Shown here in pieces: positions 13,945-62,270 of a DNA stretch of 64,000 bases; position 1 is the stretch's first letter, and each line of letters opens with the position of its first letter. The stretch is taken from the NCBI GenBank assembly GCA_036925085.1, contig JAUPFP010000051.1, positions 1,021,001 to 1,085,000 of the forward strand. The letters run 5' to 3'. The notes under the pieces are model-generated. The model did not search any database. It saw only the letters and a list, made by a program, of their open reading frames with translations, and had not been told where the DNA came from. Position numbers and translations under genes: made by a program. Source of the stretch: Brachycybe producta. Its lineage: Eukaryota; Arthropoda; Diplopoda; Playtdesmida; Andrognathidae.

Positions 13945-15650
13945 TTCCAACCAAAGTAGTTAGGGACTGCGCCACACCAGTATGGTACACTAGCAAAGTT
14001 AAAAGAGCTCTTCATAAGCAACGTTTATGGAGGAATAAGACTAGAAATCAACCAAATTTAGTAAATTCCAATGAATTCTGTATTATACGCACAGCAGCGA
14101 AACGGGAAATCTTGTTAGCTCATGACAAATTTAAAACAGAAACGCTTGGAGAATGGATAAAAACAGACCCAAAATTATTTTGGCATTACATTAAGAACTC
14201 TAGGTGAAGTAGAGAATCTATTCCTTCTCTGGTTGACACAAATGGGAAGCTTGTTTTAGATCCAGTAGTGAAAGCTACCTTATTAAATGTACAATACAAG
14301 AAGGTCTTCACAGTTGATGATGGCATACCACATGAGGGTTTTCTTTCAACTTCTCTTTGTGTGGATCAAATTGTAATAACTGCATATGGGATAGTCAAGC
14401 AACTACTAAAATTAGACTCAAATAAAAGCTGTGGTCCAGATGGGATGTATGCTATCATTTTAAAAAATCTTGCACAAGAGTTGGGTCCTTACCTTCAGTT
14501 AATTTTTCAACAGAGTTTAGATGTAGGTATTGTACCAGATATGTGGAAATTAGCTAACGTTAGTCCAATTTTTAAATCAGGAGACAAGTCTCAGGTAACT
14601 AATTATAGACCCATGTATTTAACCTCGATAGTTTGCAAGGTCCTTGAACATATTATATATTCCTCCTCAATGAATTTTCTTATGGAAAACAATCTTTTGT
14701 GTGATAACTAGTATGGGATTCTTAGGGGGCGTTCATGTGAAACCCAGCTTATACTTTTAGTTGACAACCTTCAGAAAACTTTAGACAAAGGCAGTCAGAT
14801 AGATTTGGTTTTTCTTCATCTCTGCAAGGCATTTGGCACAGTTTCTCACTCAAAACTAATGACAAAAATTAGTGGGTATAGATTGGGCAAACAGCTGTAT
14901 TTATACAGCTGTTTGCCCGCATTCTTTTTTGAGTGATAGGAAACAAAGGGTTATTGCAGGTGGGTCTGAATCTGACAGGATATGGGTTACATGAGGAGTT
15001 CCTCAGGGTAGTGTATTGGGTCCACTTCTGTTTCTTTTATATATCAATGACCTCAGCAGTCAAGTTAGCAGCAATTTCCGGGTATTTGCAGATGATACAA
15101 TAATTTATCGTGAGGTTACCTCTGAAAATGATTGCCATATTATTGATAGGGACTTGAAATCCATAGAGGCATGGTGTTCTAAATGGCAACTTCAACTTAA
15201 TAAGGAAAAATGTTGCATAATGAGGGTAGCTAGGGGAAGGAATCCAATAATATTTCCATATAGAATAGGGGTCATTCCACTTAATAACGTAGATTCTTAT
15301 AAATATTTGGGGGTGAGGATTACAGCTAAACTTTCTTGGAAGCTGCATGTCAAACAGATTATTTCCAAGTCTATGCAGATGCTAAGGTTTAGTCAATGCA
15401 TTCTAAGAAGGTGTCCCAGGGAGGTAAAATGTATAGCATATCAATCATTAGTACGTCCCCATCTAGAATACTGCAGCTCCGTGTGGAATCCCCACACTGC
15501 AGACTTAGCTCACTCCATAGAAATGGTCCAAAACAGGGCTGCTAGGTTTGTTTGTGGTAAATATGGATATGCTGACAGTGTAACTAAAATCCTTTCAGAG
15601 CTTGGTTGGGATAGTTTACTTGCAAGACATTTAGATTTTAGTCTTAATAT
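13945..15650 (+). pseudogene. CR1/L2-like LINE ORF2 (RT), 5'-truncated, split
   Basis: This is the reverse-transcriptase part of a non-LTR retrotransposon of the CR1/L2 (Jockey superfamily) type. In order it shows the linker before RT (PVWYTSKVKRALHKQRL near 13975), SCGPDGM, WKLANVSPIFKSGD, NYRPM, RGRSCETQL, GVPQGSVLGPLLFLLYINDL (near 15000-15050), the FADDT catalytic box (near 15080), KYLGVRI, and the C-terminal HLEYCSSVWNP block. The endonuclease is missing. A frame stop is present near 14203, another near 14710 (DN then TAG), and a TGA lies just before GVPQG. A 16-bp foldback replaces sequence at 14885-14918. The frame breaks at 15650 where the Ty3/Gypsy element inserted and resumes at 28751. 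Confidence 0.85.
14885..14918. repeat. Perfect 16-bp foldback palindrome
   Basis: Arms 14885-14900 and 14903-14918 (starting GGGCAAACAGCTG) are perfect reverse complements separated by 2 nt. It sits inside the LINE RT frame, where related LINEs have ordinary coding sequence, so it is a lesion and not a functional site. Confidence 0.85.
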
Positions 15651-15661
15651 TGTGACGACCC

Positions 15662-15741
15662 AGTTCTGCTCCTTTTTGGTGCAGAACTAAATCCCATGTC
15701 GTCTGCTAGGCACTTGCTAAATTGATTGCCAAGCAGACGAC
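15662..15741 (+). promoter_or_regulatory. Two hairpins at the LTR 5' end
   Basis: The first hairpin pairs AGTTCTGC (15662-15669) with GCAGAACT (15681-15688). The second pairs GTCGTCTGCT (15698-15707) with AGCAGACGAC (15732-15741). A stem at the same place is found in the other LTRs of this lineage with different base pairs, which suggests a conserved structure or a factor-binding palindrome at the start of U3. Confidence 0.6.
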
Positions 15742-15794
15742 AAAATGGCCAGCAAGGGTCCCTGTCCTCCCCCAGGTGGAGCAGCCTGGGGGTG

Positions 15795-15818
15795 TATATA
15801 ATGGCGGCGGCCATTGTA
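15795..15818 (+). promoter_or_regulatory. LTR TATA box with paired YY1-like sites
   Basis: TATATAA at 15795-15801 is immediately followed by AATGGCGGCGGCCATT, an inverted pair of ATGGCGGC-type sites that match the YY1 core. A second inverted GGTGGCCA/TGGCCACC pair lies at 15883-15901. Together these look like the core promoter of the LTR. The same block is in the 3' LTR at 28063. The solo LTR at 37638-38476 keeps the TATA and AATGGC palindrome in inverse orientation. Confidence 0.6.
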
Positions 15819-16069
15819 TACTGGACAGTGGAAGTGAAACCCTTGATGCTGCTGCAGGTTTGTGCTCTTCATCTTTTCAGCAGGTGGCCAAAATGGCCAC
15901 CATTCATCTCTTTGTTTTGCCTTTGTGATAGAGGTTGTTAACCTCTTCTCCTGGCTGGAATTAGCCAGGAGATTCATCTTTAATTGCATCTCTTTGTTGG
16001 CTCTCTGCTGGTAGAATTTACCAGCAGATATTGCCTGTGTACAGTGAGTGTTTTTATATATTCCTTGTG

Positions 16070-16075
16070 AATAAA
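16070..16075 (+). terminator. LTR polyadenylation signal
   Basis: AATAAA lies 275 bases after the TATA box and is followed by a T- and GT-rich stretch (TTGTTATTTTC, then TGTGTCCGTGTC). This is the expected order for U3-R-U5 of an LTR. In the 3' LTR the equivalent is at about 28338. Confidence 0.6.
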
Positions 16076-16482
16076 TATCTTGTTATTTTCACTCTCTCCA
16101 ACCACTGTGTCCGTGTCATATTATTTCTTTAATATTACTGGGGAAGTTACCGTGGGGAAGGTGGGGGTTCCGGTGTGGGGAAACGCCGTCACCATCACCG
16201 TCCTGTTCCGCCATGTTTTCCAGCATGTCGGCCGGTGCTTCGCGCGCGGTTCCGCGGTAGGATCCATCGGGGATCTACCGTGGGTTCCTCGTCTTGTTCG
16301 GCGGTCTTTCGTCCGTCGACGTGCGGCGAGGGAGACGACCTCCGTCCGGCGCTACCCGTGGACACGGACGGGTACAAGAGGAGGGCTGGCCAGCGCTTCG
16401 ACCCGTCCCAAGGAGGTCAAGCGACGGTAAGTTGTTTCAGAATTTGCCGTAGGTATTGTAGCGACCAAGTCGGGTCGTTACA

Positions 16483-16512
16483 ATTGGTGGAGGCGCCGGG
16501 TAGCGCTACCAC
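16483..16512 (+). promoter_or_regulatory. Putative primer-binding site
   Basis: Directly after the 5' LTR the sequence reads ATTGGTGGAGGCGCCGGG. The TGG at 16485 would pair with a tRNA CCA end, which is the usual place for minus-strand priming. I could not assign a tRNA. The segment runs into a perfect palindrome, GGTAGCGCTACC, so the local RNA could fold on itself. Confidence 0.5.
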
Positions 16513-16559
16513 CAGCCTCTCTTGTGCGGTCGGTAAGACCGGAGTCGTGTGGTGCCGGT

Positions 16560-17310
16560 AGGGCGTGGACATCTGTCCACGGAACTACGGCCGATCGCGG
16601 CTTAGGGCGTAGTAGTCCGGTGAAGGACCGTGGGACACGGACGGTTGTCCGTGATACCGCGGTGGTCACCGGGGAAAGCCCTAGGTTATCCGTAAGTACG
16701 ACGGTGGGCACGGTGGTTGACCGTGCAGGACCGTCCGAACGCGGGATAACGGTTGTTTTTACCGTCAGTATACCGGTAGCACGGTGATTTACCGTGCAGG
16801 ACCGGTAGAACCCGGTAAAAAGGCAACTTAACCGTAGCTTGTCCGGTAGACAGGTAGTACGCCATAGGGCACGGACTTTTGTCCGTGGAACTGCGGCGGA
16901 AACCCGTCTACGGCCAGGTTTACCGGTGATACCGTGGGACACGGACTGTTGTCCGTGATACCGTGGTAAAACCGGGTTACGGTCAAGTTTTACCGTAAGT
17001 AGACGGTGGATTACGGACTTTTGTCCGTGAGTCACCGTTCGAACACGGTAAGAAGTCGGTTTCACCGTTGGTGGACGGTAGATTGCGGACCGTTGTCCGT
17101 GTATCTCCGTTCTGGGACGGTGAAAAAGCTTTGTACCGTGATTAGACGGTGAACAACGGACGGTTGTCCGTATATCACCGGTCGAAGACGGTAAGAAGGA
17201 GCTCCACCGTAAATCTGACCGTGGGACACGGACTTTTGTCCGTGAAACTGCGGTAGTTTACGGTTCTACCGTTAATTGTCGGTGTTTTGCGGACTTTGGT
17301 CCGTAAATTC
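16560..17310 (+). repeat. Leader array of ~71-bp units, each with a hairpin
   Basis: Untranslated leader between the LTR and gag. Short stem-loops start at about 16564, 16636, 16709, 16779, 16870, 16940, 17013, 17085, 17156, 17227 and 17290, spaced mostly 70-73 bp. Nine share the form CGGAC-4 nt-GTCCG, with tetraloops usually TTTT or NNTT. Two (16709 and 16779) are variants with CACGGT/ACCGTG stems. Between them ACCGT and ACGGT occur about 30 times by hand count, often as ACCGT-6 nt-ACGGT. The regular phase shows a diverged tandem repeat. Possible roles are RNA packaging or dimerisation, translation control, or protein binding. Several GTAAG donors are embedded. Confidence 0.85.
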
Positions 17311-17402
17311 ACCGTATTTTACGGTAGAGTTCCTTCCGACAAGTGGTGGCCAGTTTTGCCCGTGTTCGCACGGACGAAATCGGCCAAGACCCTGGTTTCC
17401 CG

Positions 17403-19223
17403 ATGTCTGGTCGGGGAAGCAGTTTGTTGGAAGGATTGGAGTTGCGTTCCCGCACCGTCGGCCGTGGAAGGCGGCCGGAGGGGCAGCACCCTGTTGAGGG
17501 TGCTGTTGGCGGGAACGTACCCGGTGACTCCACGGAGGAAGGTGTCGTAGAAATTGTTTCTACGGACCAACCTCCGGCGGGAGGCTTTGTGACGGTGCGG
17601 ACGCACCGTCGAGACACTGCCTCCGGTGGAGCACCGGGAGACGGTGGTGATAGAGGGTCACCGACCCCAACTGGGACAGGCGTACGGCCTATGGCCGGCC
17701 TGTTAACCTCCACCGCCTCCCGTCCGGTTGGACGTGGAGGTAATCCCTTAGCGGGAGAGGTGGTAGGGACCCCGGGGCCACCCTCAGTGAATACGACGTC
17801 ATGGTTGGCGTCGATGACTGAGGAGGAGCTCCGTGAGGTTGCCAGGGGGATTGATGAACTGCGATGGCAGGGTCATCTTTCCCCAGGGATCGGGCGGCTC
17901 CATCGGTCGCAACCTCGGTTCACACCGTCGCCCGTGCACCGGGAAGGTGCAGGTAGGGAGGTTCCGCCGGCTCCGGCCAGGCGGGTGCCTCCAGGTGGAG
18001 GAATTCGGACCGCTCCTACGGGAGGCGGTCGGGGGGTTCCTCCGCCCGTTCAGCGACCACGGGTCCACTTGGTGGAACCAGAGGATGCTGAATCCGATGC
18101 TGAGACTTCGGGGAACCGGGGCAGGGCACCACGGCGGGTAAGTACCGCGCCGTGGACGCCTGCACCGGCTGTCCCGTCGGAGATCCAGGCGTTTGGGTTT
18201 TTTAACCCAGTTCACTCGTTCATACGGTATGATGGACGAGAGGACATTACGCCTTTTCTCCGGCAGTTTGAAGCCAAAGCTCGGGCTCAGCGCTGGACAG
18301 ATGAGGCCAAGTGCAGTTTCTTTACGTACCTGCTCGATGGTCCGGCTGAGGAACATTACGCCTGTTTGGTGGAGTTCAAGCCGAACCTGACCTGGCCGGA
18401 GTTGAGGCAGGCTATGCTTCACCGCTTTGGGACGAAGAATCAGGCTCAGGCCTGTTTCGACCGTTTCGAGGCCATGAAGCAAGGGCCTGCGGAATCACTC
18501 CAGGCGTTCTACTGGCGCTTTGTTGAGCTAGCAGAACGAGTTTCTCCTGGTGAGGATGAGTCTTGTCGACTCCTCCGATACAAGAAGAAACTGCAGCCGG
18601 AGATTCTCAGACCTCTCTGGGGATCGAAAGCTGAGACGGTCAGGGACTTTACCACCGAGGCGATGTTGGTCGAGGCCGACATGCTTACGGCGGGAGCGTT
18701 ACCTGCCCGTACCTTGACGGTACCCGGGACCCAGGCTGCGGCTAAGGTCTCTGGTGCTGTGGCAAAGCCCAAGGGCTCTGCTACGTCTACTTCTACCTCT
18801 TCGGGTGTGAAGGCAGCGGCACCGTCCAAATCGGACGGAGCTACCGCCAAGACCGGAGGGCAGAAGGGAAGAAAGACGAAGCGGCAGAGCCAGGGTGGAA
18901 ATAAGTCCACAGCGGCCCCGTCAAGTTCCAGCCAAATGGCTGGAGGTGGAGGTCCTACTCGTAGGCAACCAGGTCCATGCTTTCGGTGTAACCAAATGGG
19001 TCACCTTAGGAAGGACTGTCCGAGGGCAGTTGCCCAAGGACAGGTTGCTCGAGTACCACCGGGCGAAAGCCCAGTGGTGCAGTACCTGCCGGGTCTAGCA
19101 CCCGTGGTACTGCAGGGCCGGGAGTATCTGTCCACCGTCATTGATGGACAGATGTTCTATCTACCTGTCGCCAGAAACGAGGGCCCGCCCTCGTTAAACC
19201 GGCGCCGGTCCCTGCAGAACTGA
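17403..19223 (+). CDS. gag: Gag polyprotein
   Basis: Structural protein that would form the virus-like particle and bind the element's RNA. I choose ATG at 17403 (606 residues); the frame is open upstream but has no earlier ATG back to 17343. Residues ~1-260 are Gly/Pro/Arg-rich and probably disordered. A capsid-like helical region spans roughly 262-430, containing FLRQFEAKARAQRWTDEAK, the TWPELRQAMLHRFG block and ESLQAFYWRFVELAERV. A Ser/Thr/Lys-rich linker follows. A canonical CCHC zinc knuckle has C526, C529, H534 and C539 (CFRCNQMGHLRKDC). It is larger than many Ty3/Gypsy Gags because of the long N-terminal region. The stop (19221-19223) lies in the loop of the frameshift hairpin, so a fraction of ribosomes should continue into pol. 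Confidence 0.93.
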   Translation: MSGRGSSLLEGLELRSRTVGRGRRPEGQHPVEGAVGGNVPGDSTEEGVVEIVSTDQPPAGGFVTVRTHRRDTASGGAPGDGGDRGSPTPTGTGVRPMAGLLTSTASRPVGRGGNPLAGEVVGTPGPPSVNTTSWLASMTEEELREVARGIDELRWQGHLSPGIGRLHRSQPRFTPSPVHREGAGREVPPAPARRVPPGGGIRTAPTGGGRGVPPPVQRPRVHLVEPEDAESDAETSGNRGRAPRRVSTAPWTPAPAVPSEIQAFGFFNPVHSFIRYDGREDITPFLRQFEAKARAQRWTDEAKCSFFTYLLDGPAEEHYACLVEFKPNLTWPELRQAMLHRFGTKNQAQACFDRFEAMKQGPAESLQAFYWRFVELAERVSPGEDESCRLLRYKKKLQPEILRPLWGSKAETVRDFTTEAMLVEADMLTAGALPARTLTVPGTQAAAKVSGAVAKPKGSATSTSTSSGVKAAAPSKSDGATAKTGGQKGRKTKRQSQGGNKSTAAPSSSSQMAGGGGPTRRQPGPCFRCNQMGHLRKDCPRAVAQGQVARVPPGESPVVQYLPGLAPVVLQGREYLSTVIDGQMFYLPVARNEGPPSLNRRRSLQN

Positions 19224-19238
19224 GCTGCAGACGACCGG
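19193..19238 (+). promoter_or_regulatory. -1 programmed ribosomal frameshift signal
   Basis: The heptamer G TTA AAC (19193-19199) is in the gag frame with the X XXY YYZ phasing, and GUUAAAC is a known -1 slippery site (arterivirus type). After a 5-nt spacer, CCGGTC (19205-19210) pairs with GACCGG (19233-19238), and CTGCAG (19212-19217) pairs with CTGCAG (19225-19230), closing a 7-nt loop that contains most of the gag stop region. The pol frame is open from 19145 through this point, giving a ~78-nt gag-pol overlap. A -1 slip enters pol directly without needing the pol ATG. Confidence 0.85.
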
Positions 19239-19240
19239 TA

Positions 19241-22200
19241 ATGCTTGAAAACTCAGGTGCCCGGCAAAGCCGGCGAAGTAAGGAAGGAGCGTACCTTCGG
19301 GCAGTCTCCAGATATGTGGGTATCCTGCATGACGCAGGGGTGCCTCTGGCTAGGTCTGCGGACCCAGAAATTACCCAGTGGGTATTTCAGGAGCCAAGCC
19401 CCACACTGGAAGCTGCGCTTGCCCGGCTGGAGAGCTGGGTGGCACCTTTCTTCCCTGATGAGGGGGAGGAAGGTCCGAGTGGTACGGGCATTACGAGGGC
19501 TTCGAGCGTTGGTGCGCCCATGCTGTCGCCCAGGCCTGGTGGGTCTCCTGGAGTGGAGACTGGAAGCCGGGCCCCTGAGCATCCGGTACGACCGGATGAG
19601 GCTCAGAGAAGTAATGTCGGGCAACGACGGTTGCCCATTCCGGAATTACAGAGCCGTGCTTACTTGCGTGGGGCACCGCGTGTTCTGGTGTCGATGGATG
19701 GTCGGCTGGTTGAGTCGATCGTCGACACCGGTGCCGAAGTATCGGTAATGAGCATGTCGGTGGCACGGGAGATGGAGTTACCGGTGCAGGAGGTTAGCCT
19801 CCCCTCATTCCTGACGGGCATGAGCGGGTACTCCATCCAGATAGAAGGAGTCATGTACGTGGACATGTCAATCCACGGACGGTCCATACATACCCATCTT
19901 CTCCTCATTGAGGGTGAAGGGGAAGCCGTAATAGGTGTTGACCTGGCTTCCCGGTTCGGGTTAATGTTGGACGTCGTGAGCCGGAAAGTTTATTTCCGGG
20001 AAGACATCTGGAATGCACATCCAGATGATCTTCATGCCGCACTGGCCGTCCAGGCTGCACAGGGTACTTCGGTACAACTTCCGAGTTCCGTATTGGAGGC
20101 GTTGGCGAGGCTTCACGATTCTGTGGAGCCGGTGCTACTCCCTCCTTTCGGGTTCCCGGAAGGTATGCCTGCGGAGCCTGAAAAGGTGGATGGGTGGGTT
20201 GACATTGTGTCACCTACGCTTGCCGAGACCAGTTCTCCAATTAGGAGCGGGGAAGTTTGTTCCCTGCGACTATTGCAGAATGTATGGTTATCAGCTCATG
20301 AGCGGAAGGTAGTTTCCGTGAGCTTGATAGAGCATGCTGGCCCTGGACAGCTGCTTCTCGTTGAGCCCCATCGTAAAGCCTTAGGAGGCCGTGGTCTGTT
20401 GGCGGTGGCAGGAATTGCCGAAGCCACAGAGGAAGGCTCTTACGACATTTGGCTTGAGAACGTCGCCGACGTACCCATTGCCCTGGAGACAGGGGAGGGT
20501 GTGGCGACAGCTCAAGCTGTGGAGGCAGCCCTAGTGGTGGGACTGGACGTTCCATCTAAGTTGAGAGGGGGAGACCCCACTCATGGAGATGGTCGACCAG
20601 GGGGGCTTCCGCCTAAGTTGAGAGGGGCGACCAAGAAAGGTCGCCGGATCCTCAATGCGGAAGTCAAGCCCACTCTCGAAGAGTGCCTTAAAATCGGACC
20701 TAGTCTGAAGCCTGAGGAGGCGGCACAGCTTCGGGAGTTCCTGCTGGAACGCCGTGATCATTTTGCGTTCGATTACACAGAGCTGGGGGAAACCCCGCTC
20801 GTCGAGCACACAATTGATACCGGTGGGTTACCTCCGGTGCGTGAAGGATTGCGAAGAACCGCTCCGGCGGCTCGTGCAATCGAGAGAGAAGAGGTAGCGA
20901 AGATGTTGGATGCAGGGGTAATCCAACCTTCGCATAGTCCCTACGCGAGCCCTATCTTGCTTGTTCGCAAGAAGGATGGTGGCTTCCGTTTCTGCGTGGA
21001 CTATCGGCGACTGAATGCCCAAACTAAGGCGGATCAGTACCCGTTACCTCGCATCGATGATGCCCTCGATTCACTTGCTGGAGCGAAGTATTTCGCAACC
21101 CTAGACCTTGCTAGTGGTTACTGGCAGGTCAGGATGGCGGAGCAAGACATTGAGAAGACAGCATTCATTTGCTCTCAAGGTCTGTTTGAGTTCCGAAAAA
21201 TGCCTTTCGGACTCTGCAATGCTCCTGCCACCATGCAAAGAGCGTTAGACCTCTTGTTGGCGGGACACAAGTGGGAGAGCTGCTTGGTGTACCTAGACGA
21301 TATTATCGTCTTTGGGAGCACCTTCGAGCAGTTTCTCGAACGCTTGAGTACTGTCCTGAGACTGTTACGAGGGGCGGAGCTGAAACTCCAGCCGAAGAAA
21401 TGTTTCTTCGGTTTTGACAAAGTCAAATATCTCGGTCACATTGTTAGTGCCGAGGGAGTTGCTCCGGACCCGGGACTCGTAAGAGCAGTCGAGGAGTTCG
21501 ATGTCCCTACAACGGTGACCGCCGTCCGAAGTTTTCTTGGACTGGCCGGCTACTACCGTAGGTTCATCAAGGACTTTGCCAAGATCGCAAGACCTCTGCA
21601 TGATCTGACCAGGAAGGATGCGTCCTTTGACTGGTCAGAGCAGTGTGGTCTAGCTTTCGAACGGTTAAAGGCATTTTTAACCGAAGCACCGGTGCTCACC
21701 ATGTATGATCCACGTGGTGAGGTGTTAATTCACACCGATGCTAGTGGGTACGGTCTAGGTGTCGTAGTATACCAGAAGTTACCTGAGGACAAGGCTCCTC
21801 GGGTTCTGGCCTACGCTAGCCGTCTCATGAAGGGACCGGAAACACGGTATAGTGTCACCGAGCAGGAATGCTTGGCGATCATGTTTGCCGTGGGTAAATT
21901 CCGACCTTACATCTTTAACCGGGACTTTGTGATCGTCACAGATCACCATGCGCTCTGTCATTTGCAGACTGCCAAAAACCTGCAAGGCAGGTTGGGGCGT
22001 TGGCAAATGCAGTTGCAGGAGTACCGGTATAAGATTCAGTTCAAGAAGGGGAAACTTCACGAGGATGCTGACTGTTTGAGTCGGTATCCGGTGAAGGAAG
22101 TTGTTGATCCTTCTTTGCCTGAACACGTCGAAGCCGACGTGGGTGAGGTGATTTACCGGATCCGGTCTGAGGTGGATTGGGTAATGGAGCAGGCCAACGA

Positions 22201-25200
22201 CAGTTGGTGCTCCAAGGTGAAGGGTGAGCTCTCCACCGACCCCGACTCGGACTTAAGGTTCAAGTTTGTGGTGGCAGACAAGTTGTTGTATGCCATCAAA
22301 TCCATTCAGGATCGCACTAGAACTGTGTTGGTTGTGCCGAGGTCGTGTCAAGCCTTCTGCTTGCGGAAGTTGCACGATAGCTCCGAAGCTGGTCACTTCG
22401 GAGTGTACAAGACCTACCAACGTATGCGTACTCGTTTCTACTGGTTAGGTATGAAACGTGACACGGTGGAGTATGTTAAGTCATGCTTAGTGTGTCAGAG
22501 AGTACGACAGTTCGCAAGAGCTCAAGGATTCTTGCAACCCATAGTTCCTGAGTACCCGGTTCATGCCTGGGGAATGGACTTCGTTGGGCCTTTTCCCGCG
22601 TCCGTGGGTGGAGTCACATATGTATTAATTATGGTGGACTACTTCACCCGGTACGGCGTGGCAAAGGCAGTACGAAGGGCTACGGCCGCTTGTGTTGTCA
22701 AGTTTCTGAAAGATGAGATCTTGTCGGTGTATGGCACTCCGACTACTCTCATCTCGGATCGTGGATCCCAGTTCTGTAGCAAGATTTTGCGAAAGTTCCG
22801 GGAGCGCTATAATATAGCGCAGCACTTCACGACGGCGTACCATCCGCAAGCTAATGGGCTTACGGAGCGTACGAACAAGACCGTGATGGAAACCATCAAG
22901 CGTTACCTTGATCCCCTCAAGGACCAACGTGATTGGTGGGAGAAATTGCGGCCCGCCGTGTGGGCCTACAACACTGCGGTGCAGGAGAGCACGGAAGTGT
23001 CTCCGTACCAATTGTTGTTTGGTCGTGAGCCTAGGTTGGGGATTGACAATCTCCTCCCTAACGGTCCGGTCCGCGACTTGCCCGACCAGCAAGCCGTGGA
23101 AGAGCGTGCTCGTCAAAATTTGGCGGCCGCTCAAAGAAGACAGAAGAGTCGGTATGACGCCGGCCGGGTGGAGCCACCCCGATACCAGCCTGGTAATAAG
23201 GTCTGGATAAGGGATATGGCTGGGAAGCTCGGTCAAGCCAAGAAGTGGAATTTCGCTTACAAGGCTGAACTGGGTACGGTGGTCCGGCAGGTTTCCGACC
23301 TAGTCTACGAGATAGAATTCGTAGATGGGTATGGTCGGAAGGTGCGGGACCGGTTTCACGTTGATAACTTGAAGCCGTACATTCCCACATGTGGGGTTCG
23401 TGAGGAAGATGGCCTAGGTGGCTCTGAAACCTCATCGAACTCTGAAGGGTCCAGTGATGCTGAGTCTGGGTCAGCTAGAAGTGAAAGGAGGGATGATATC
23501 TCTCCAGGACCTTCTGGCCAGCCTAGCTTGGTGGTGGAGTCGTCTGACTCTGAGGCAGAGGAAGCACCTCGGCCCCGGTATTACCTCCGTCCGAGGAAAC
23601 CCAGGGCCTTTGAGGTTATGCAAGCTTCCTCTGGAGCTCCAATTGGCACCAGGGTGGTGCAGGGACTTTGGAAGTCCCTGTCCTGGTGGGAGAGAGCAGG
23701 TCATTCCCTGTTGTGGGATGATGACTTGAATTGGGGAAATAAGGATTGGGAGCGCAGTGACCCCTGGACTGGGCGCCGCCTGTCTGTCACGGACAGATGG
23801 CGGTTGTTCAGGGGGAGCTGGGTGGAGAAATCCACAATTCCCAACTGCAAACTCGAAGAGGAGTCTGCAGTAGTAATTTCCCTTAAAGATCTCTCTCCTG
23901 AGTCTTTCCGTAGAGATTCAGGCCGTGTATCTGCTCCTATTGTGGCAGACGACGGTAGAATCTCTATGGTAACAGCGACGGAGGCGGCTAAGACTGTGTT
24001 AGCCGCCAAGCCGCCGCTGTTAGCCATTCCGTTGGTGAAATTAGCGGCTAAACGCCATCTTGTCGTTAAATTAAAAAAAAGACGGACGTTTGCCGCTATT
24101 TTTGCGAAAAAACGTGTATTTCACCGACGAAAAGGCAAAAACTCAGGACAATTGGATGCTTCAAAACCAGAAGTAAGTCCCCAAAGGGGAATTTCCTTTT
24201 CCTGCCCTTTGGCAGTATTCTTTTATTGCTTTTGGGTGTGTCAAGCGGTCATTGACCGCTTGAACACGTGGTTTTGGTGGAGGCGTCACCGTCATAGTTT
24301 TGACGGTGATGCTACCGCTGATGGGGCCGTGGAGAACACGGTGTTTTACCGTCAGAACGCCGTGGGACTTGGTGAGGACCAAGTTCTACGGAGTTTAGAC
24401 GGTGAAAAGGTGTTTTTGCACGGTTCTGTCCGTGAAACCACCGTGGAAAATGGTTTCGACCGTGGTCCACGGTGTTCTAACGGACAGAAAGTGGTTTTGC
24501 ACGGTAGTTGTCCGTGCAAATCACTCCCCAACGAACCTGAAGTGTCGGTGCCAGGTTTGGACGGTCCAAACACCTGTTTGGCCGATTCCGACCGTGCGAT
24601 TCCCGTGAAGGACGGTTTTTACCGTGGGTCACGGGATATGCACGGTGGAAACGGGATTTCCTACGGTGATTTACCGTGGAAATCACCGCCCAAGTTACCG
24701 AACGTAAAATTACGGAATTTGGACCGACCAAAACTATTTTTGGCCGGTTCCGACCGTGCAATTACCGTTGGGGACGGCTTTGGCCGTGTACCACGGTGCC
24801 TGCCCGGCCGGAAAGCATTTTTTCGCGGTTTTGGTCCGTGGAAAATGTTTCCTACCGTAGTAGGTCAAATACTTATGATGTTTTTTGATCTTTTTCAGGT
24901 AGCCACGGCGGAGAAGGAAGACACTGGCGGGGGTGGCAGCGGTTCCTCCTCCCTCAGCTCTTTGCATCCGGGTGATGCGGAGCTGTTGGAGTCGGATGCC
25001 GCTTGCTCCCCGGACTCTTTGGGTCGGGCCATAGCTGACTTGGCCGACGGCGGACCTTTGGGTCTGCTATTGGCTGATGATGCTGTGGTGACCCAGCCGT
25101 CCCCTCGGACCCCTCTATACTATGGGTCTGTTTGGGGACGGTTGACACCGCCTCCCACCGTGGGTTCTCCGAGGGCGACCATTAGGTTGGGAGCCATGGA

Positions 25201-27838
25201 GATCCCGGCGGTTGGTGAGCCGGTGCGGGCCAGCACGCCCGTCGAAGAGGTGGCCACCGGTTTGGCAGCTACCTCTTTGACGAAGTGTGATCCTCCGGCG
25301 GACCAAGGCCGGCTAGAATTGGCTAGCCTGGCTGAGGGAAGCAGAGATGCCTCCTTGGGAGGAACTCTGGTCATTGACACGGAGGCGGAGATGGACACCA
25401 TGGAAGATGATGTGGTGCCCGTCTCCAGGCGGTGGCGAGGCCAACGGATCCTCTCTTCAGAGGACTCTTCGGAGTCTGAAGGGAGAGGATCAGGCTCCCT
25501 GGGTAAACGGTCTGTGACCGGATCCCAGGAGGGTACTCCAGCCCGGAAGGGCAGTCCAATTCCGGTTGACCCTGTTGGGGAGACGGAAGCGGCCTGTCTG
25601 GAAAGGCAGGATGAAGCCGCGCAGTACCAATCGGCGTCAGGTGGTTTCCTGGCGTCGGATGGGAAACGCTACTTCGTTGGGGAGTACCCTACCCAGCAGT
25701 TCCGTAAGGACGGTTCTAAATCCAAAAAGAAGTCCGGAGCTGCTCGGTACACCGCCAGGATGAAAGCCCTGGCGAAGAGGGAGGCACAGTTGGAGAGGAC
25801 GAAGGCTGCCTTGGCGAAGTTTACGCCGGCAGTGGGTCTTCTCCCTGTGTCGCCAGCTCATCCTGAGGGAGCTGCTGGTGCTGCCTGGCCTGTTGGTCAG
25901 CCTCCGGTTTCGGGACCAACCGAAGCGGAGGCTGGCTGTTCAAGCTGGCAGTCTGCAACTCCCAAGAGGGACCGAAGAGCGGAAAAGAAGGCCAATCAGC
26001 CTTCTCCTCCCGCTCCGAGGAAGAGCACTCGCGCCAGTGGTGGTGGTGGTCAGGGACAGAAACGTCCCCGCCCCTTCACCCCACCTTTGGCCAGTAATCC
26101 GGTGGGAAAGAAGGCTAAGACCTCTCGTGGAGGTCCGGCCGGCTTTCCCAAAGGAAAGTGGAGCCAGGAGGACCGCTTGCGGTACCACCAGGCACAAGCG
26201 GCCAGATGTGCTGCTCTTGTCCAGCGGGACAAGAAGGCTGCACACCGTCGGGAGTTTGAGCTCCAGGCCTCTCAGTTTCCGCCCCTGCGGGAAGCTGATG
26301 CCCGGGATCCGCTCAGTACAGGGGAACCTCCCGTCGGAGTTGGTGCCACTCCTATTCCGAGTGCCACCACGGCTGCTGGCCAACAGCGTATCGCCCAGAG
26401 GGGGGTGATACAAGCTGCCAAGGCACCTCACCAGGGTGCGGCAGTTAGACCTGTTGGTGGCAAGGGTCAGCCGACCCTTGCCCCGGAGAAGAGAGATCTT
26501 CCCCGGGATGGAAAGGGACGCTTCGTGGCGACACGAGCGTCCTCGACCGTCAGTTCGGCTACGGGAGCTAGTTCAAAGACTAGTACAGCTTCGGCTAGAA
26601 AGTCTGCGACTAGTAAGTCCGGTCAATCGAAGGGGGCTAACCACCCTCCTAAGACTGACCGGCCCGGTAAGTCTGCGAGCCATGGTGCGTCCAGCTCGCA
26701 GCACGGTGAACCTTCTTCTCATGATAAGAAGAAAAAGAAAAAGAAGAAAAAGAAGGGCAAGAAGGCCCATCATGAGAAGAAGGGAGGTCCGAAGACTTCC
26801 ACCCGTGGGTCCCAGGGGACTGGTGGTGGTGGAAGTATCGGGACCGAGGAGGAGGAGTCCCGACACGGTGCGGCCGTGTCGGCCGGGAGCCAACCGCACC
26901 ATACCCGTCATAGCACGACGGCGCAGATGGATGATCGGTCAATGCGAGACGTTGTTCTCGGTATACCGTCATCCTCCCCGAAGGTGGTGGCGGTACCGAA
27001 CTTATCAGTTCGGTCGGTGGGAACTCTCCACCGGGTCAGCTCACCGTTACCTAGCGGTGGGGGCAGCCCGGCGGGGAAAAGTAACGTTCCCGCCAAACGT
27101 GGTCCCGTGCCTTCCGTGGGAAGGACACCCTTCTCTCCGGGTCCCGATGATGGGGTCTTTGCGGCCCTAGGACCGGAAGAAAGAGCCAAGTCTCCTGAGC
27201 CCGAGGGCGAGGGTCGACGCTTTGGTGCGGAGCCTCCGTATTCAGAAGGAGAGGTCTTTCTGAATAACCGGCTTGGTCTGTGGCAGGACCAGCCGGGAAT
27301 GGAGGGGTACCAATACCACGGATACTATCGTCTGGGAGAGATACTCCCAGTTCCGTGGACGCCGTCGTTGCCGTCATTTGCCATGCGATATGTGCTGGCA
27401 TTTGGCAGTACGGACTATCCGGTGTTGCTGGTCGTCAACCCGGTAAGGAGATGCTACGCTGTTCTAGACGTGGTGGGGACAGGAGCTGGGCTCGTACGTA
27501 TAGCCCAGCTCGCGGCCCCATACGTCCAGCGTCTCCTTGGCTGCGACTTGGAAGGAATGGTGGGAGAATTTGTCACCCACCCTCTACGAGGTAGCGTGTC
27601 CGATCCCGCGGCCGCTCTCGTAGACCTTCTTACAAGTCGGACTCTTCGTCAGAGTCCGCAACTTGACACACTTGCCGTCGAAGAGTTTCGACAGCAGGAG
27701 GTGTTGAGACTCAGGGGGACTGATTTCGATGTCGGTCTCGGGTGGAGAAACACCCGGATGTGTTCGTGGTGGATACGTCGGTGGATGTCGGAGTGGATGG
27801 TGGCTCCGATGAATCCACCACCGAAGAAATCAGTCTGA
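19241..27838 (+). CDS. pol: Pol polyprotein with long C-terminal extension
   Basis: Replication enzymes of the element, made probably as a Gag-Pol fusion by -1 frameshift. Numbering from the ATG at 19241. The retropepsin has D162-T-G-A. RT has the FRFCVDYRRLN and SGYWQVRMAE blocks and the catalytic Y684-L-D-D687. RNase H has HTDASGYGLG (D833) and TEQECLAI. Integrase has a zinc finger H1045, H1052, C1082, C1085 and catalytic D1113, D1173, E1209 (DX35E spacing). An SH3-like tail ends in HVDNLKPYI and YYLRPRKPR near 1447. No chromodomain is visible. Every catalytic residue checked is present. A normal Pol would stop near residue 1455; this one continues open to 2865 without a stop (see the separate extension entry). 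The protease must be cleaved from Gag-Pol; cleavage sites are not evident by eye. Confidence 0.95.
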   Translation: MLENSGARQSRRSKEGAYLRAVSRYVGILHDAGVPLARSADPEITQWVFQEPSPTLEAALARLESWVAPFFPDEGEEGPSGTGITRASSVGAPMLSPRPGGSPGVETGSRAPEHPVRPDEAQRSNVGQRRLPIPELQSRAYLRGAPRVLVSMDGRLVESIVDTGAEVSVMSMSVAREMELPVQEVSLPSFLTGMSGYSIQIEGVMYVDMSIHGRSIHTHLLLIEGEGEAVIGVDLASRFGLMLDVVSRKVYFREDIWNAHPDDLHAALAVQAAQGTSVQLPSSVLEALARLHDSVEPVLLPPFGFPEGMPAEPEKVDGWVDIVSPTLAETSSPIRSGEVCSLRLLQNVWLSAHERKVVSVSLIEHAGPGQLLLVEPHRKALGGRGLLAVAGIAEATEEGSYDIWLENVADVPIALETGEGVATAQAVEAALVVGLDVPSKLRGGDPTHGDGRPGGLPPKLRGATKKGRRILNAEVKPTLEECLKIGPSLKPEEAAQLREFLLERRDHFAFDYTELGETPLVEHTIDTGGLPPVREGLRRTAPAARAIEREEVAKMLDAGVIQPSHSPYASPILLVRKKDGGFRFCVDYRRLNAQTKADQYPLPRIDDALDSLAGAKYFATLDLASGYWQVRMAEQDIEKTAFICSQGLFEFRKMPFGLCNAPATMQRALDLLLAGHKWESCLVYLDDIIVFGSTFEQFLERLSTVLRLLRGAELKLQPKKCFFGFDKVKYLGHIVSAEGVAPDPGLVRAVEEFDVPTTVTAVRSFLGLAGYYRRFIKDFAKIARPLHDLTRKDASFDWSEQCGLAFERLKAFLTEAPVLTMYDPRGEVLIHTDASGYGLGVVVYQKLPEDKAPRVLAYASRLMKGPETRYSVTEQECLAIMFAVGKFRPYIFNRDFVIVTDHHALCHLQTAKNLQGRLGRWQMQLQEYRYKIQFKKGKLHEDADCLSRYPVKEVVDPSLPEHVEADVGEVIYRIRSEVDWVMEQANDSWCSKVKGELSTDPDSDLRFKFVVADKLLYAIKSIQDRTRTVLVVPRSCQAFCLRKLHDSSEAGHFGVYKTYQRMRTRFYWLGMKRDTVEYVKSCLVCQRVRQFARAQGFLQPIVPEYPVHAWGMDFVGPFPASVGGVTYVLIMVDYFTRYGVAKAVRRATAACVVKFLKDEILSVYGTPTTLISDRGSQFCSKILRKFRERYNIAQHFTTAYHPQANGLTERTNKTVMETIKRYLDPLKDQRDWWEKLRPAVWAYNTAVQESTEVSPYQLLFGREPRLGIDNLLPNGPVRDLPDQQAVEERARQNLAAAQRRQKSRYDAGRVEPPRYQPGNKVWIRDMAGKLGQAKKWNFAYKAELGTVVRQVSDLVYEIEFVDGYGRKVRDRFHVDNLKPYIPTCGVREEDGLGGSETSSNSEGSSDAESGSARSERRDDISPGPSGQPSLVVESSDSEAEEAPRPRYYLRPRKPRAFEVMQASSGAPIGTRVVQGLWKSLSWWERAGHSLLWDDDLNWGNKDWERSDPWTGRRLSVTDRWRLFRGSWVEKSTIPNCKLEEESAVVISLKDLSPESFRRDSGRVSAPIVADDGRISMVTATEAAKTVLAAKPPLLAIPLVKLAAKRHLVVKLKKRRTFAAIFAKKRVFHRRKGKNSGQLDASKPEVSPQRGISFSCPLAVFFYCFWVCQAVIDRLNTWFWWRRHRHSFDGDATADGAVENTVFYRQNAVGLGEDQVLRSLDGEKVFLHGSVRETTVENGFDRGPRCSNGQKVVLHGSCPCKSLPNEPEVSVPGLDGPNTCLADSDRAIPVKDGFYRGSRDMHGGNGISYGDLPWKSPPKLPNVKLRNLDRPKLFLAGSDRAITVGDGFGRVPRCLPGRKAFFRGFGPWKMFPTVVGQILMMFFDLFQVATAEKEDTGGGGSGSSSLSSLHPGDAELLESDAACSPDSLGRAIADLADGGPLGLLLADDAVVTQPSPRTPLYYGSVWGRLTPPPTVGSPRATIRLGAMEIPAVGEPVRASTPVEEVATGLAATSLTKCDPPADQGRLELASLAEGSRDASLGGTLVIDTEAEMDTMEDDVVPVSRRWRGQRILSSEDSSESEGRGSGSLGKRSVTGSQEGTPARKGSPIPVDPVGETEAACLERQDEAAQYQSASGGFLASDGKRYFVGEYPTQQFRKDGSKSKKKSGAARYTARMKALAKREAQLERTKAALAKFTPAVGLLPVSPAHPEGAAGAAWPVGQPPVSGPTEAEAGCSSWQSATPKRDRRAEKKANQPSPPAPRKSTRASGGGGQGQKRPRPFTPPLASNPVGKKAKTSRGGPAGFPKGKWSQEDRLRYHQAQAARCAALVQRDKKAAHRREFELQASQFPPLREADARDPLSTGEPPVGVGATPIPSATTAAGQQRIAQRGVIQAAKAPHQGAAVRPVGGKGQPTLAPEKRDLPRDGKGRFVATRASSTVSSATGASSKTSTASARKSATSKSGQSKGANHPPKTDRPGKSASHGASSSQHGEPSSHDKKKKKKKKKKGKKAHHEKKGGPKTSTRGSQGTGGGGSIGTEEEESRHGAAVSAGSQPHHTRHSTTAQMDDRSMRDVVLGIPSSSPKVVAVPNLSVRSVGTLHRVSSPLPSGGGSPAGKSNVPAKRGPVPSVGRTPFSPGPDDGVFAALGPEERAKSPEPEGEGRRFGAEPPYSEGEVFLNNRLGLWQDQPGMEGYQYHGYYRLGEILPVPWTPSLPSFAMRYVLAFGSTDYPVLLVVNPVRRCYAVLDVVGTGAGLVRIAQLAAPYVQRLLGCDLEGMVGEFVTHPLRGSVSDPAAALVDLLTSRTLRQSPQLDTLAVEEFRQQEVLRLRGTDFDVGLGWRNTRMCSWWIRRWMSEWMVAPMNPPPKKSV
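24173..24898 (+). other. Possible in-frame intron (exitron-like) within pol
   Basis: The segment starts GTAAGT after GAA and ends TTTTTTGATCTTTTTCAG, a strong polypyrimidine tract and acceptor. It is exactly 726 bp, or 242 codons. Both ends fall between codons, so the frame is open with or without it. The related pol copy also has AAA|GTAAGT at the same place (near 62020). The acceptor could alternatively be used with a donor in the LTR or leader to make a subgenomic mRNA for the 3' module. Splicing is inferred, not shown. Confidence 0.5.
24241..24865 (+). repeat. Second hairpin / ACCGT-ACGGT array, inside pol
   Basis: Stem-loops include 24241-24263 (10-bp arms, 3-nt loop), 24286-24309 (9-bp arms), 24338-24352, 24419-24434 and 24499-24517, followed by ACGGT/ACCGT pairs to about 24865. 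Composition and motifs match the 5' leader array. As the frame stays open, the DNA repeat is also read as three imperfect ~49-residue repeats (around SDRAIPVKDGFYRG and SDRAITVGDGFGRV), that is two ~73-bp units per protein repeat. Confidence 0.75.
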
Positions 27839-27894
27839 AACTGAGTGGGGGTCATGGGCGCAATCCTTGCTGGCTCAGCCGACCTGATCCCGGG

Positions 27895-27918
27895 GCGGAT
27901 CAGGGAAGTTGAGAGGAT
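27895..27918 (+). promoter_or_regulatory. Polypurine tract
   Basis: A purine-rich run ending GGGAAGTTGAGAGGAT abuts the TGTGACG start of the 3' LTR and would prime plus-strand synthesis. The diverged relative has GGAAAAGTTGAGAGGAT in front of its LTR start at 51871, so the tract is conserved. Confidence 0.75.
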
Positions 27919-28750
27919 TGTGACGACCCAGTTCTGCTCCTTTTTGGTGCAGAACTAAATCCCATGTCGTCTGCTAGGCACTTGCTAAATTGATTGCCAA
28001 GCAGACGACAAAATGGCCAGCAAGGGTCCCTGTCCTCCCCCAGGTGGAGCAGCCTGGGGGTGTATATAATGGCGGCGGCCATTGTATACTGGACAGTGGA
28101 AGTGAAACCCTTGATGCTGCTGCAGGTTTGTGCTCTTCATCTTTTCAGCAGGTGGCCAAAATGGCCACCATTCATCTCTTTGTTTTGCCTTTGTGATAGA
28201 GGTTGTTAACCTCTTCTCCTGGCTGGAATTAGCCAGGAGATTCATCTTTAATTGCATCTCTTTGTTGGCTCTCTGCTGGTAGAATTTACCAGCAGATATT
28301 GCCTGTTTACAGTGAGTGTTTTTATATATTCCTTGTGAATAAATATCTTGTTATTTTCACTCTCTCCAACCACTGTGTCCGTGTCATATTATTTCTTTAA
28401 TATTACTGGGGAAGTTACCGTGGGGAAGGTGGGGGTTCCGGTGTGGGGAAACGCCGTCACCATCACCGTCCTGTTCCGCCATGTTTTCCAGCATGTCGGC
28501 CGGTGCTTCGCGCGCGGTTCCGCGGTAGGATCCATCGGGGATCTACCGTGGGTTCCTCGTCTTGTTCGGCGGTCTTTCGTCCGTCGACGTGCGGCGAGGG
28601 AGACGACCTCCGTCCGGCGCTACCCGTGGACACGGACGGGTACAAGAGGAGGGCTGGCCAGCGCTTCGACCCGTCCCAAGGAGGTCAAGCGACGGTAAGT
28701 TGTTTCAGAATTTGCCGTAGGTATTGTAGCGACCAAGTCGGGTCGTTACA
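27919..28750 (+). repeat. 3' LTR of the 13.1-kb element
   Basis: Same length as the 5' LTR and identical by eye except for one base (T versus G in GCCTGTKTACAG). TATA and polyadenylation signals are at about 28063 and 28338. It is followed by ATAT (28751-28754), the target duplication, and then by the resumed LINE frame. Confidence 0.95.
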
Positions 28751-29152
28751 ATATCTTTAATCAAATGCTGGAAGGCTCTTGCCCTAAACCTACTTCAAGT
28801 AAACTTTGCAGGGCATTATATTCGGGTAGGGGTGACCACTCTAACAAAGTTGGAGAGATTTTTGCATGAACAGATTCTTATTACTGGTCATTTGTCCCTA
28901 GGACGATTCAACAATGGAACTCGCTTGCTGGGGATTCGCTTATGGGAGTCATAATTTTGTTTTGTTTTAACAATGCATATGTTTGCAGCATTAAAAATAT
29001 TGAAATTGTTGTTAGGTTTATATCAATGGTGTTTTATATTTTCTGGTTTTGACAATGCATTTTATATGCTGCACTTGGACTCTTGTCCCTCTGCCATAGG
29101 CCTTTATGGCTGCTTGCAGAGTAATTTTTCAAATTCAAATTCAAATATATAT
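28751..29152 (+). pseudogene. LINE ORF2 C-terminus and 3' UTR, continuation of 13.9-15.65 kb
   Basis: After removing one ATAT copy, the frame from 15650 continues here into GRGDHSNKVGEIFA, a stop, then TDSYYWSFVPRTIQQWNSLAG, the conserved C-terminal block of this LINE type. The 3' UTR ends with the CTCTTGTCCCTCTGCCATAG line and CAAATT-type tail repeats near 29130-29150. This confirms that the gypsy element is nested in an older LINE. Confidence 0.85.
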
Positions 29153-36460: not shown

Positions 36461-36717
36461 GACTGCCTTTCTCAAATTAAACATTTGTTTCCCCAGACAA
36501 ACTATTAGTATGAGTGTGATCGCTCCCTCTGTACTTGTTTTTTTTAATAGTAGAAGTACTCGAAACAATCAGAAAACGAAGCAGATAGAACAAAAAAAAA
36601 ACGATGTAAATTATGATTTTCTTGCTATTATTCTTTTTTATTCTTTATAAGATTTTTATGTAACTATTAAGGGATCCTCTGCACAGTTCAATTCAATTCA
36701 ATTAAATACACCTGCAA

Positions 36718-40450: not shown

Positions 40451-40494
40451 AGTAACTAGATTTGATTTCTTCCTAGAATCAGGGTATTTAGAGA

Positions 40495-41388: not shown

Positions 41389-41430
41389 TGAACGAGTGGA
41401 AGGAGCACCAGGTGGGGGTCAAAGTCTTAA

Positions 41431-44645: not shown

Positions 44646-44649
44646 AGTG

Positions 44650-50640: not shown

Positions 50641-51870
50641 GGTTGTGACAATGTCCAGCTCTCAACTCCGGCCAAAAGCCCATTGGAGATGGAAAGGACC
50701 AGAAAACTCCCCATCTTCTGATTGGAACCTCTCCTATCATGTATCAGGGGAAGAAGGGCCCAGAAGGTCCTCTTTAAAAAAAAGAAGAGGACCTACATAT
50801 GTTAAGGATATGTCAGGTAAGACTGGAAGCCAAGATCCAAAAGCTCAAGGGCTTCAGTCATCTAAACGAGTTTAAAGTCCAGAAGGGTGACTTTCTGAAC
50901 ATGCAGGATTGTCCCTTTAGAAACCTGATCAGGGAACCAGGACCTTCTGTGGACAGCAGTAAGGGTCAAATAAGGATCGCTGCTCCCTACCCTCAGTGAC
51001 TTATGGGTCAGGAAGGAACTGTTGCGACAAGAGTGCAGGAGGCAACTCCAACACCAACTCACTGTGCAGCTCCTGCAAAGGTTGCTGGCAGCAAACTTAA
51101 GCCAAATCTAGCACCAAAAGTGTTCTACTCCCTCAGAGACCTGATGACAGATTTCTAAAGAAGTCTGCCATGGTATCCGGTTCAGTTATGGAAGTGACAT
51201 CGCCCAAGAGTTATGGCTGTCTCACCAACATTTTTAAGCCTTCAACATCAAAAATTGTAGACAACTTCTGCGACGGTGAGACCTGTTAAGTCCTTGAATG
51301 TGGTGAAGTAAACTATGATGTATGGTAAACTGACTTCTCAGGAGCCTGGAAAGGCAGGATTATCAATTCCATGGCTTTTACCATCTGGGAGCGCCACTTC
51401 CAGAGCCATGGGTGAGAGTAACACAGCCTTACAAATTGATCCACTTCGTGTTTGTAAGTTGGGAAGACTTTCCATGATTGATTTTGATCAACCCAGAGAA
51501 GCAAACATTCTGCGTTATGGATACAGTGAGACAAGGTGCTGGGCCTGTTGCTGTGTTCCTGCATGCAGCCCCACTTATGGAATGTTTGATAGGAGAAATG
51601 TTGGGACAATTTATTGTTGAACCAGTATGAATCCCGCCATGTGCCTGATTGATTTCCTCATCAGTTGTGTTCTTGGATTGAACCGATGAATCCCCCTGTA
51701 CTCGCATGTACCTAGCATGAGCAGGCCAGTGTGCCACATCACTGGTGGGTCCATATCGTTCAACTCTGGAGGTTCGGAAGTAAGTACAGGTACTACGGGT
51801 TTCTGGGCAAAATCCATGGACTGGCTCGACCTACCTGTTCCCGAGGCAGAACAGGAAAAGTTGAGAGGAT

Positions 51871-61500: not shown

Positions 61501-62270
61501 TGGTGGGAGAGAGCCGGCAGTCCACTACTGTGGGCGGACGGCTGGGACAGGAGGCGGCCGGACATTGCGGTGTTTGGGGCCCGCCACGGTTTTGGTAGAA
61601 ACCAAGGGCGGCCCATCACCAGGTGTCCAGCCAAAGGTCCGACAAAATCGGTCCGTGGACGGAGAAATCCGTCCGTAAAAACCTCCATGAAACCTCCAAT
61701 TACCGTCAATATAAGAGAATTGACGGTAAATGTCTACCCACCAGTTCCAGTCTTGGTGTAGGAGAATTCACCGTGTGTCTGCCCCTAAAAAGGCAGACGA
61801 CGGTGAAATCTCCATGGTGACCATGCATGAGGCGGCTGATGATCTTTTAGCCGCTACTGCACGACCACTAGCCGCGAAGACGGTGAGTTTGGCGGCTAGG
61901 CGCCATATTGTTTGTAAATCTAACAAACAAAGAATGCCGGCACCACGTGTGACAAAATATCCTCGTTTTCACCGTCTGAAAAGCTGCCCAAGCCTGGAAA
62001 AGAAGAACAAAATTGAAAAAGTAAGTCCCTCTAAGGGAATTTCCTTCTCCTGCCTGTTGGCAGTTCTTTTTTCTGTATTAACAGTTTGTTTTACGGTCAA
62101 TGACCGTATACACACGTGGTGGGAGTGGCTACGCCGCCATGACCGTTGTCATGGTGGCCAAACCACTACGGAAAGCACTTTTCCGGCAGGTTCAGCCCGT
62201 CCGAACGCCGTGTCGCTTGGGAAGGCCCAAGTTCGATGGTGTTTGGATGGTAGAAGCCCGCCAGGGAGTG
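58505..62270 (+). pseudogene. Frameshifted pol copy of the large Ty3/Gypsy family
   Basis: Homologous to 20680-24300 of the intact pol: pre-RT, RT (YLDD box near 59125), RNase H (HTDASGYGLG near 59565), integrase HHCC (60200-60325), the first catalytic Asp (MDFVGPFP near 60405) and NGLTEHTNKTVME (near 60700), SH3-like tail, and the 3' module as far as GISFSCLLAVLFSVL (near 62035). It is inactivated by 4-nt deletions near 59054 and 59521, a TAG at 59697, a frameshift near 60070, a TGA near 60336, a foldback insertion at 60537-60585 and shifts near 60820 and 61140. Gag and protease are missing upstream. It ends against an inverted LTR near 62270. Confidence 0.9.
60537..60585. repeat. Perfect 22-bp foldback palindrome in integrase
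   Basis: Arms 60537-60558 and 60564-60585 (AAGGACGAGATCC at the start) are perfect reverse complements around a 5-nt loop. The intact element lacks the right arm at this point, so it is a newly made inverted copy of adjacent sequence that destroys the DDE frame. Confidence 0.92.

What the first reader, a model, noticed from the sequence alone, without database searches (positions are those of the whole stretch)
15651..28750. Giant Ty3/Gypsy element with a third, unrecognised coding module
The element is complete and young but twice the usual size. Pol continues open for about 1410 residues beyond the normal integrase end. The extension has distinct blocks (hydrophobic stretch, acidic and basic parts, KRYF block, QFPPL block, C-terminal globular domain) and no env layout. 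This may be a previously undescribed accessory gene of a Ty3/Gypsy lineage.
Basis: partly seen in the sequence, partly recalled or inferred. Interest (0 to 1): 0.9.

Follow-up and report, generated by a model that had tools for sequence, protein, structure and literature searches.

The report
Giant retrotransposon with dead-protease-like tail
A large mobile element has lengthened its main protein by about 1,400 residues with a piece that no protein collection searched here recognises, that is kept under selection in several related element families, and whose end may fold like a SUMO protease without its catalytic residues.

Summary
Window 15651-28750 is a complete, young Ty3/Gypsy element: 832-bp LTRs with 1 mismatch, TSD ATAT, inserted in a LINE ORF. 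Its pol frame stays open about 1,410 codons past integrase. The extension is not a quirk of this copy. The same genome (295 Mb, unnamed) holds it in many copies of this family and in related families; one family group lacks aa 1648-2018. It is under purifying selection: dN/dS 0.42 overall and 0.28 for the last 212 aa against a distant family, versus 0.13 for RT-IN. No relative was found in Pfam, PDB sequences, IMG/VR or 5.8 billion proteins, within those tools' limits. Pol is probably reached by -1 frameshifting at a GUUAAAC that is invariant in 10 of 10 copies. The C-terminal domain is predicted, at low confidence, to have the Ulp1/SENP/adenain (CE-clan) fold. By register, the catalytic His and Cys sites hold Tyr/Phe (Ile in one family) and Pro, which suggests a pseudoprotease used for binding. 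Sequence comparison with Ulp1 is not significant. New variant of a known kind.

The parts
15647..15650 (.). target-site duplication ATAT (second copy 28751-28754)
15651..16482 (+). 5' LTR, 832 bp
16486..17342 (+). leader: array of repeated hairpin modules, strongly structured
17343..19223 (+). gag frame (626 aa from the first GTG; first ATG at 17403), Retrotrans_gag and CCHC knuckle
19193..19199 (+). GUUAAAC, probable -1 frameshift site in the gag frame
   Evidence: invariant in 10 of 10 copies aligned
19204..19239 (+). hairpin downstream of the slippery site
   Evidence: z -2.6 for 19190-19260; 2 of 200 shuffles as good
19145..27838 (+). open pol frame (2897 codons stop to stop)
19688..19936 (+). 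retropepsin (pol aa 150-232)
20963..21445 (+). reverse transcriptase (aa 575-735)
21632..22024 (+). RNase H (aa 798-928)
22334..22846 (+). integrase H2C2 and rve core (aa 1032-1202)
23606..27835 (+). pol extension, aa 1456-2865: the unrecognised module
23561..24181 (+). proximal block aa 1441-1647, Trp-rich and basic, fast evolving
24182..25294 (+). block aa 1648-2018 with hydrophobic segment (24191-24253) and degenerate internal repeats; absent in the family with 2478-codon frames
25295..27199 (+). block aa 2019-2653: acidic, then basic, Gly/Ser/Lys-rich, probably mostly disordered (inferred from composition)
27200..27835 (+). C-terminal domain aa 2654-2865; modelled CE-clan-like core at 27251-27673
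27416..27607 (+). positions equivalent to the catalytic centre: Y2726 (His site), P2727 (Trp site), D2743 (Asp site, kept), P2789 (Cys site)
   Evidence: inferred from register and modelled secondary structure
27919..28750 (+). 3' LTR, 832 bp
58514..62251 (+). decayed relative in the window; its extension remnants are at 61381-61548 and 61748-62251
51355..51627 (+). decayed C-terminal domain of an older relative (33% identity, in-frame stop)

Best explanation
A Ty3/Gypsy lineage of this genome carries a long in-frame accessory module behind integrase, probably translated as part of a frameshifted Gag-Pol-X polyprotein of roughly 3,500 residues. The module is an anchor or linker region (hydrophobic segment, acidic and basic stretches) that ends in a globular domain with a catalytically dead Ulp1/SENP/adenain-type (CE-clan) fold. 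Most likely the dead protease domain works as a binder: it docks the integrase-linked part of Pol, or a product cut off by the element's own retropepsin, onto a ubiquitin-like modifier such as SUMO or a modified nuclear or chromatin protein. That would help the pre-integration complex reach or choose its target, in the position where chromoviruses carry a chromodomain and Ginger1 transposases carry Ulp1. Shown: the architecture, its spread through related families, selection, the invariant slippery site. Supported by low-confidence prediction only: the fold. Inferred: inactivity, the binding partner and the step in the life cycle.
Confidence: 0.5

Rival explanations
1. CERV-like regulator: the extension is (also) the last exon of a spliced mRNA and acts in the nucleus on genomic RNA (export or packaging). 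The basic stretches and the structured leader would be partners.
For: Cer1 of C. elegans has an unrelated ORF of no homology at the env position behind integrase, in frame with the polyprotein, expressed by splicing as CERV, which is needed for genomic RNA export (PMC10309623, abstract and passages). Net charge +30 in aa 2131-2420 and +24 in aa 2421-2653, with a poly-Lys run. The leader is an exceptional hairpin array, also structured in one copy each of two other families.
Against: The frame is open from IN into the extension in open copies of families 1 to 3 and in L058 and L057, which a spliced exon would not need. No splice site was tested. No similarity to CERV was tested.
Confidence: 0.22
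2. Envelope-like or membrane-anchoring module (degenerate env), the hydrophobic segment being its anchor.
For: Position after pol; one hydrophobic segment (aa 1651-1671, mean hydropathy up to 1.85, and up to 2.56 in relatives); L057 has two hydrophobic stretches as read by eye from its sequence.
Against: No Pfam env match; no separate frame; the family with 2478-codon frames lacks the segment yet keeps the C-terminal domain, and L058 has no comparable segment as I read it.
Confidence: 0.06
3. The C-terminal domain is a new fold or another beta-beta-beta-alpha-beta-alpha fold (for example RNase H-like), and the CE-clan match is an artefact of a shallow alignment.
For: Low pLDDT; non-significant profile comparison with Ulp1, while the control comparison with the element's own RNase H gave a somewhat higher score (19.1 vs 11.6).
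Against: CE-clan chains fill the ranked PDB lists of two models, and Ulp1-like proteins are among the top rows of the viral list. The two models are not independent.
Confidence: 0.2
4. Non-functional read-through sequence that happens to be open.
For: GC-rich DNA has fewer stops; fast evolution of the first half; ratios of 0.75-0.80 in several segments of the close pair L021-L015.
Against: Same 2897-codon frame in 12 of 150 scored copies; dN/dS of the extension as a whole 0.40-0.60 in the 5 pairs bootstrapped, all ranges under 1; relatives at 33-50% identity still keep the C-terminal domain.
Confidence: 0.02

Closest known systems
Ginger1 DNA transposons (Gypsy-type integrase plus C-terminal Ulp1 or OTU domain)
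   Same: Gypsy-type integrase followed by a C-terminal domain of (here only predicted) Ulp1 fold (PMC2836005, passages seen)
   Different: Ginger1 are DNA transposons with inverted repeats; here an LTR retrotransposon with RT, with over 1,200 residues between integrase and the domain and no catalytic residues at the inferred sites
Cer1 CERV (C. elegans LTR retrotransposon; Ty3/Gypsy by recall)
   Same: Long module without known homologues behind integrase in the polyprotein frame, not env-like (PMC10309623, abstract and passages)
   Different: CERV is 517 aa, from a spliced 5-exon mRNA, with a G-protein-like domain in an AlphaFold model; splicing not tested here; predicted fold differs
Utopia/NeSL non-LTR retrotransposons with Ulp1-like protease
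   Same: Retrotransposon protein carrying an Ulp1-like domain (PMC4640811, passages)
   Different: N-terminal position, non-LTR element; activity of either was not compared
Bdelloid Vesta/Juno and planarian Burro elements
   Same: LTR elements with extra domains; Burro is gypsy-like and has extra domains in frame (PMC5408684 and PMC6431247, passages)
   Different: Their modules are DEDDy exonuclease, GDSL esterase, env, dUTPase or SUMO-like domains, not this one

Membership tests
Ty3/Gypsy LTR retrotransposon | LTRs with TSD, gag with CCHC, pol order PR-RT-RH-IN | tested here: met
Ty3/Gypsy LTR retrotransposon | gag-pol expression by frameshift (common, not universal) | tested here: inconclusive
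   Slippery site invariant in 10 of 10 copies; hairpin folded for the window copy only; no translation assay
env-bearing errantivirus-like element | env gene after pol | tested here: inconclusive
   No Pfam env match; no separate long ORF there; structure of aa 1441-2653 not modelled
CE-clan (C48/C5) cysteine protease | Fold | tested here: inconclusive
   Leans to yes: CE-clan chains fill the lists, but model pLDDT is 49 and 62 and sequence tests are negative
CE-clan (C48/C5) cysteine protease | Catalytic His-Asp-Cys (with Gln) | tested here: not met
   At the inferred positions Tyr/Phe, Asp (kept) and Pro in the A2 members that reach them; Ile at the His site in L058. Placement is by register, so it depends on the fold. 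Filed as 'folds like', not as a protease
Chromovirus | Chromodomain C-terminal to integrase | tested here: not met
   No chromodomain among the pol matches up to E 1
Ginger1 | DNA transposon with terminal inverted repeats, no RT | tested here: not met
   RT and LTRs present
CERV of Cer1 | Spliced mRNA joins gag exons to the post-integrase exon | not tested
   No transcript data

The most novel reading that the evidence does not exclude
A lineage of animal-type Ty3/Gypsy elements turned a SUMO-protease domain into a dead SUMO/ubiquitin-like reader fused to Pol, using the host's modifier system as its integration or nuclear-transport address, together with an RNA leader built as an array of about 72-nt hairpin modules that may be the partner of the basic linker. 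This would be a third kind of integrase-linked targeting module besides chromodomains and host-tethering motifs.
Probability: 0.22. Interest if true: 0.82.

Novelty: new variant of a known kind. Interest (0 to 1): 0.62.

Why it matters
Extra modules behind integrase are where LTR elements acquire new ways to reach chromatin, leave the nucleus or enter cells. This one is large, conserved by selection across element families, absent from the collections searched, and ends in what may be a pseudoprotease of the SUMO/adenovirus-protease fold. If right, it links LTR retrotransposons to the recurrent but unexplained association of transposons (Ginger1, Mutator, Utopia) with Ulp1 folds, and suggests that binding, not cleavage, can be the selected function.

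Tried and rejected
Env: rejected (no family match; hydrophobic segment lost in the family with 2478-codon frames). Host-gene capture by sequence: no hit in Pfam, PDB sequences or proteins beyond weak chance matches, and only such matches in NCBIfam. A weak PDB profile hit to mug105 (E 0.14) and hits to NucC (E 1.7-2) were judged chance. Among the 120 pol relatives listed (of 2464 hits), none matched the extension at E <= 1. Those 120 are mostly from the pseudoscorpion Cordylochernes, with a few fish, frogs, a nematode, plants and algae, and they match the standard pol part. Rfam: none at gathering scores. Internal ATG start for pol: rejected (3 of 10 copies). Sequence proof of the Ulp1 relation: failed. 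The host could not be named.

Limits: each genome search scores at most about 150 places, so counts are lower bounds. Of the families seen only (37 of 150 rows with frames of 2560-2582 and 10 of 150 with 2364-2370, by my count) I examined one copy each (L057, L058). The L057 C-terminal match to the window is weak (26%, E 0.018). Protein searches see only relatives of a limited length range sharing 5-residue words. The selection tests used 5 bootstrapped pairs and 9 pairs by segment, chosen from intact frames; decayed copies were left out.

Full report
OBSERVATION. The window stretch 15651-28750 is a complete LTR element. The LTRs are 832 bp (15651-16482 and 27919-28750), start TG and end CA, differ at 1 position, and are flanked by ATAT on both sides. 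Joining the flanks shows an uninterrupted LINE reverse-transcriptase tail, so the element inserted into a LINE. gag (17343-19223) has a Retrotrans_gag domain and a CCHC knuckle; pol has PR, RT, RNase H, H2C2 and rve in Ty3/Gypsy order. What looks like the usual pol tail (RPRYYLRPRKPR, aa 1444-1455; recognised from recall) is followed by an open frame to aa 2865. The coordinates of the element and of pol in the finding are right.

EXPRESSION. gag and pol frames overlap (pol is open from 19145, gag ends at 19223) and pol is in the -1 frame. The overlap holds G UUA AAC in the gag frame followed by a hairpin (-26.1 kcal/mol for 19190-19260, z -2.6, 2 of 200 shuffles as good). In 10 of 10 copies aligned, from three family groups, this heptamer and its immediate neighbours are invariant, while the ATG at 19241 is present in 3 of 10. 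So pol, with the extension, is probably made by -1 frameshifting. This is an inference from sequence.

SPREAD. The genome is 295.3 Mb in 442 contigs, unnamed, and the window is C51:1021001-1085000. With the C-terminal domain as query, 150 of 150 scored places (1487 candidates) match, from 100% to 75% identity; 12 of the 150 lie in a 2897-codon open frame and 16 in one of 2870 or more. The proximal block gave 129 matches from 124 scored candidates (of 1545) at 61% or more. A 50-aa query from the old decayed copy in the window found a further family (150 of 150 scored of 631 candidates), 9 rows of which by my count have frames of 2879-2966 codons. Reading 20 fetched stretches and 15 more, some of them decayed, gives these family groups. 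Family 1 is this element. Family 2 has pol frames of up to 2478, 2433 or 2584 codons, with RT-IN very similar and aa 2019-2864 about 63-66% identical, but lacks aa 1648-2018. Family 3 has frames of about 2880-2966 codons, with the full extension at about 46-50%. Older decayed ones keep the C-terminal domain at 33-40%. A fourth (L058, frame 2369) has the extension at about 44% in its conserved part. A fifth, very numerous (L057, frame 2571), has a highly diverged tail with hydrophobic stretches and only a weak match in the C-terminal domain (26%, E 0.018). One copy each of the last two was read, and whether the L057 tail is homologous throughout is open.

SELECTION. Window vs L034 (family 3): RT-IN dN/dS 0.13; whole extension 0.42 (bootstrap 0.36-0.48); aa 2019-2653 0.39; C-terminal domain 0.28 (0.18-0.41). 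Window vs L015 (family 2): 0.16, 0.50, 0.53 and 0.30. L015 vs L034: 0.13, 0.45, 0.51 and 0.27. Close copies L010 and L009: extension 0.40 and 0.60. The first part, aa 1456-2018, is less constrained (0.35-0.83), with two bootstrap ranges reaching above 1. By smaller segments in nine pairs the ratios reach 0.94, with four segments of the L021-L015 pair at 0.75-0.80. So constraint is real but looser than on RT-IN.

SEARCH FOR KIN. No Pfam family for the extension beyond chance-level matches, no PDB sequence beyond chance, no protein at E <= 0.001 for the extension or E <= 1 for the C-terminal domain among 5.8 billion within the tool's length and word limits, and no viral contig. RT-IN itself has 2464 hits; the best 120 are listed, at up to 53% identity, mostly animal; none of those 120 shares the extension.

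WORKING. The best reading is a pseudoprotease binder at the end of Pol. Position next to integrase, a basic middle and the Ginger1 precedent (PMC2836005, passages) point to docking of the integration machinery. The main rival is a CERV-like role in genomic RNA export (PMC10309623, abstract and passages); the exceptional leader fits it too. Env and chance are disfavoured. Function was not tested.

LEADER. Between the LTR and gag lies an 857-nt array of hairpins, some perfect with 7-bp stems (7 found; mean 0.32 in 100 shuffles), folding at -453.7 kcal/mol against -326 for shuffles (z -13.8, 20 shuffles). 850-nt slices near the same place in a family 3 copy (L059; its slice also takes in some 400 nt of LTR) and a family 2 copy (L060) fold with z -10 and -12 (8 shuffles each). 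Rfam has no match at its gathering scores.

NOVELTY. LTR elements with extra ORFs are a known kind (PMC5408684, PMC6431247, passages), and Ulp1 domains are known in other transposons. The paper searches listed no Ty3/Gypsy retrotransposon with such a tail, judging from listings and the passages read; PMC6338049 on accessory domains (passages) does not contain the word Ulp1. I therefore call it a new variant of a known kind.

On rereading I corrected the range of dN/dS for aa 1456-2018, added the Ile of L058, the off-register pairwise scores, the composition of the L059 slice and the tool-route overlaps.

Noticed in passing
16486-17342: Leader RNA built as an array of repeated hairpin modules (period about 72 nt), fold z -13.8; slices of one copy each of two other families fold with z -10 and -12. 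Possible packaging, export or translation signal.
   Followed up: partly
58514-62251: Second, decayed relative of the element, by eye closer to family 3 in its extension remnants; one of several decayed gypsy pieces (35520-38476 minus, 44647-45551 minus, 46778-51888 plus).
   Followed up: partly
39344-41418 (minus): LINE endonuclease-like ORF next to a GDSL lipase-like ORF (Pfam hits below curated cut-offs): looks like an esterase-bearing LINE (label recalled).
   Followed up: no
G000: A very numerous gypsy family with frames of 2560-2582 codons (37 of 150 rows by my count); one row shows a 4082-codon frame.
   Followed up: partly
L013, L019: RT-IN about 94% identical to the window element while the extension is only about 65%: either fast evolution of the tail or exchange of tails between families.
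   Followed up: no
16483-16513: The presumed primer-binding region TGGTGGAGGCGCCGGG... can fold on itself as a hairpin; the primer tRNA was not identified.
   Followed up: no
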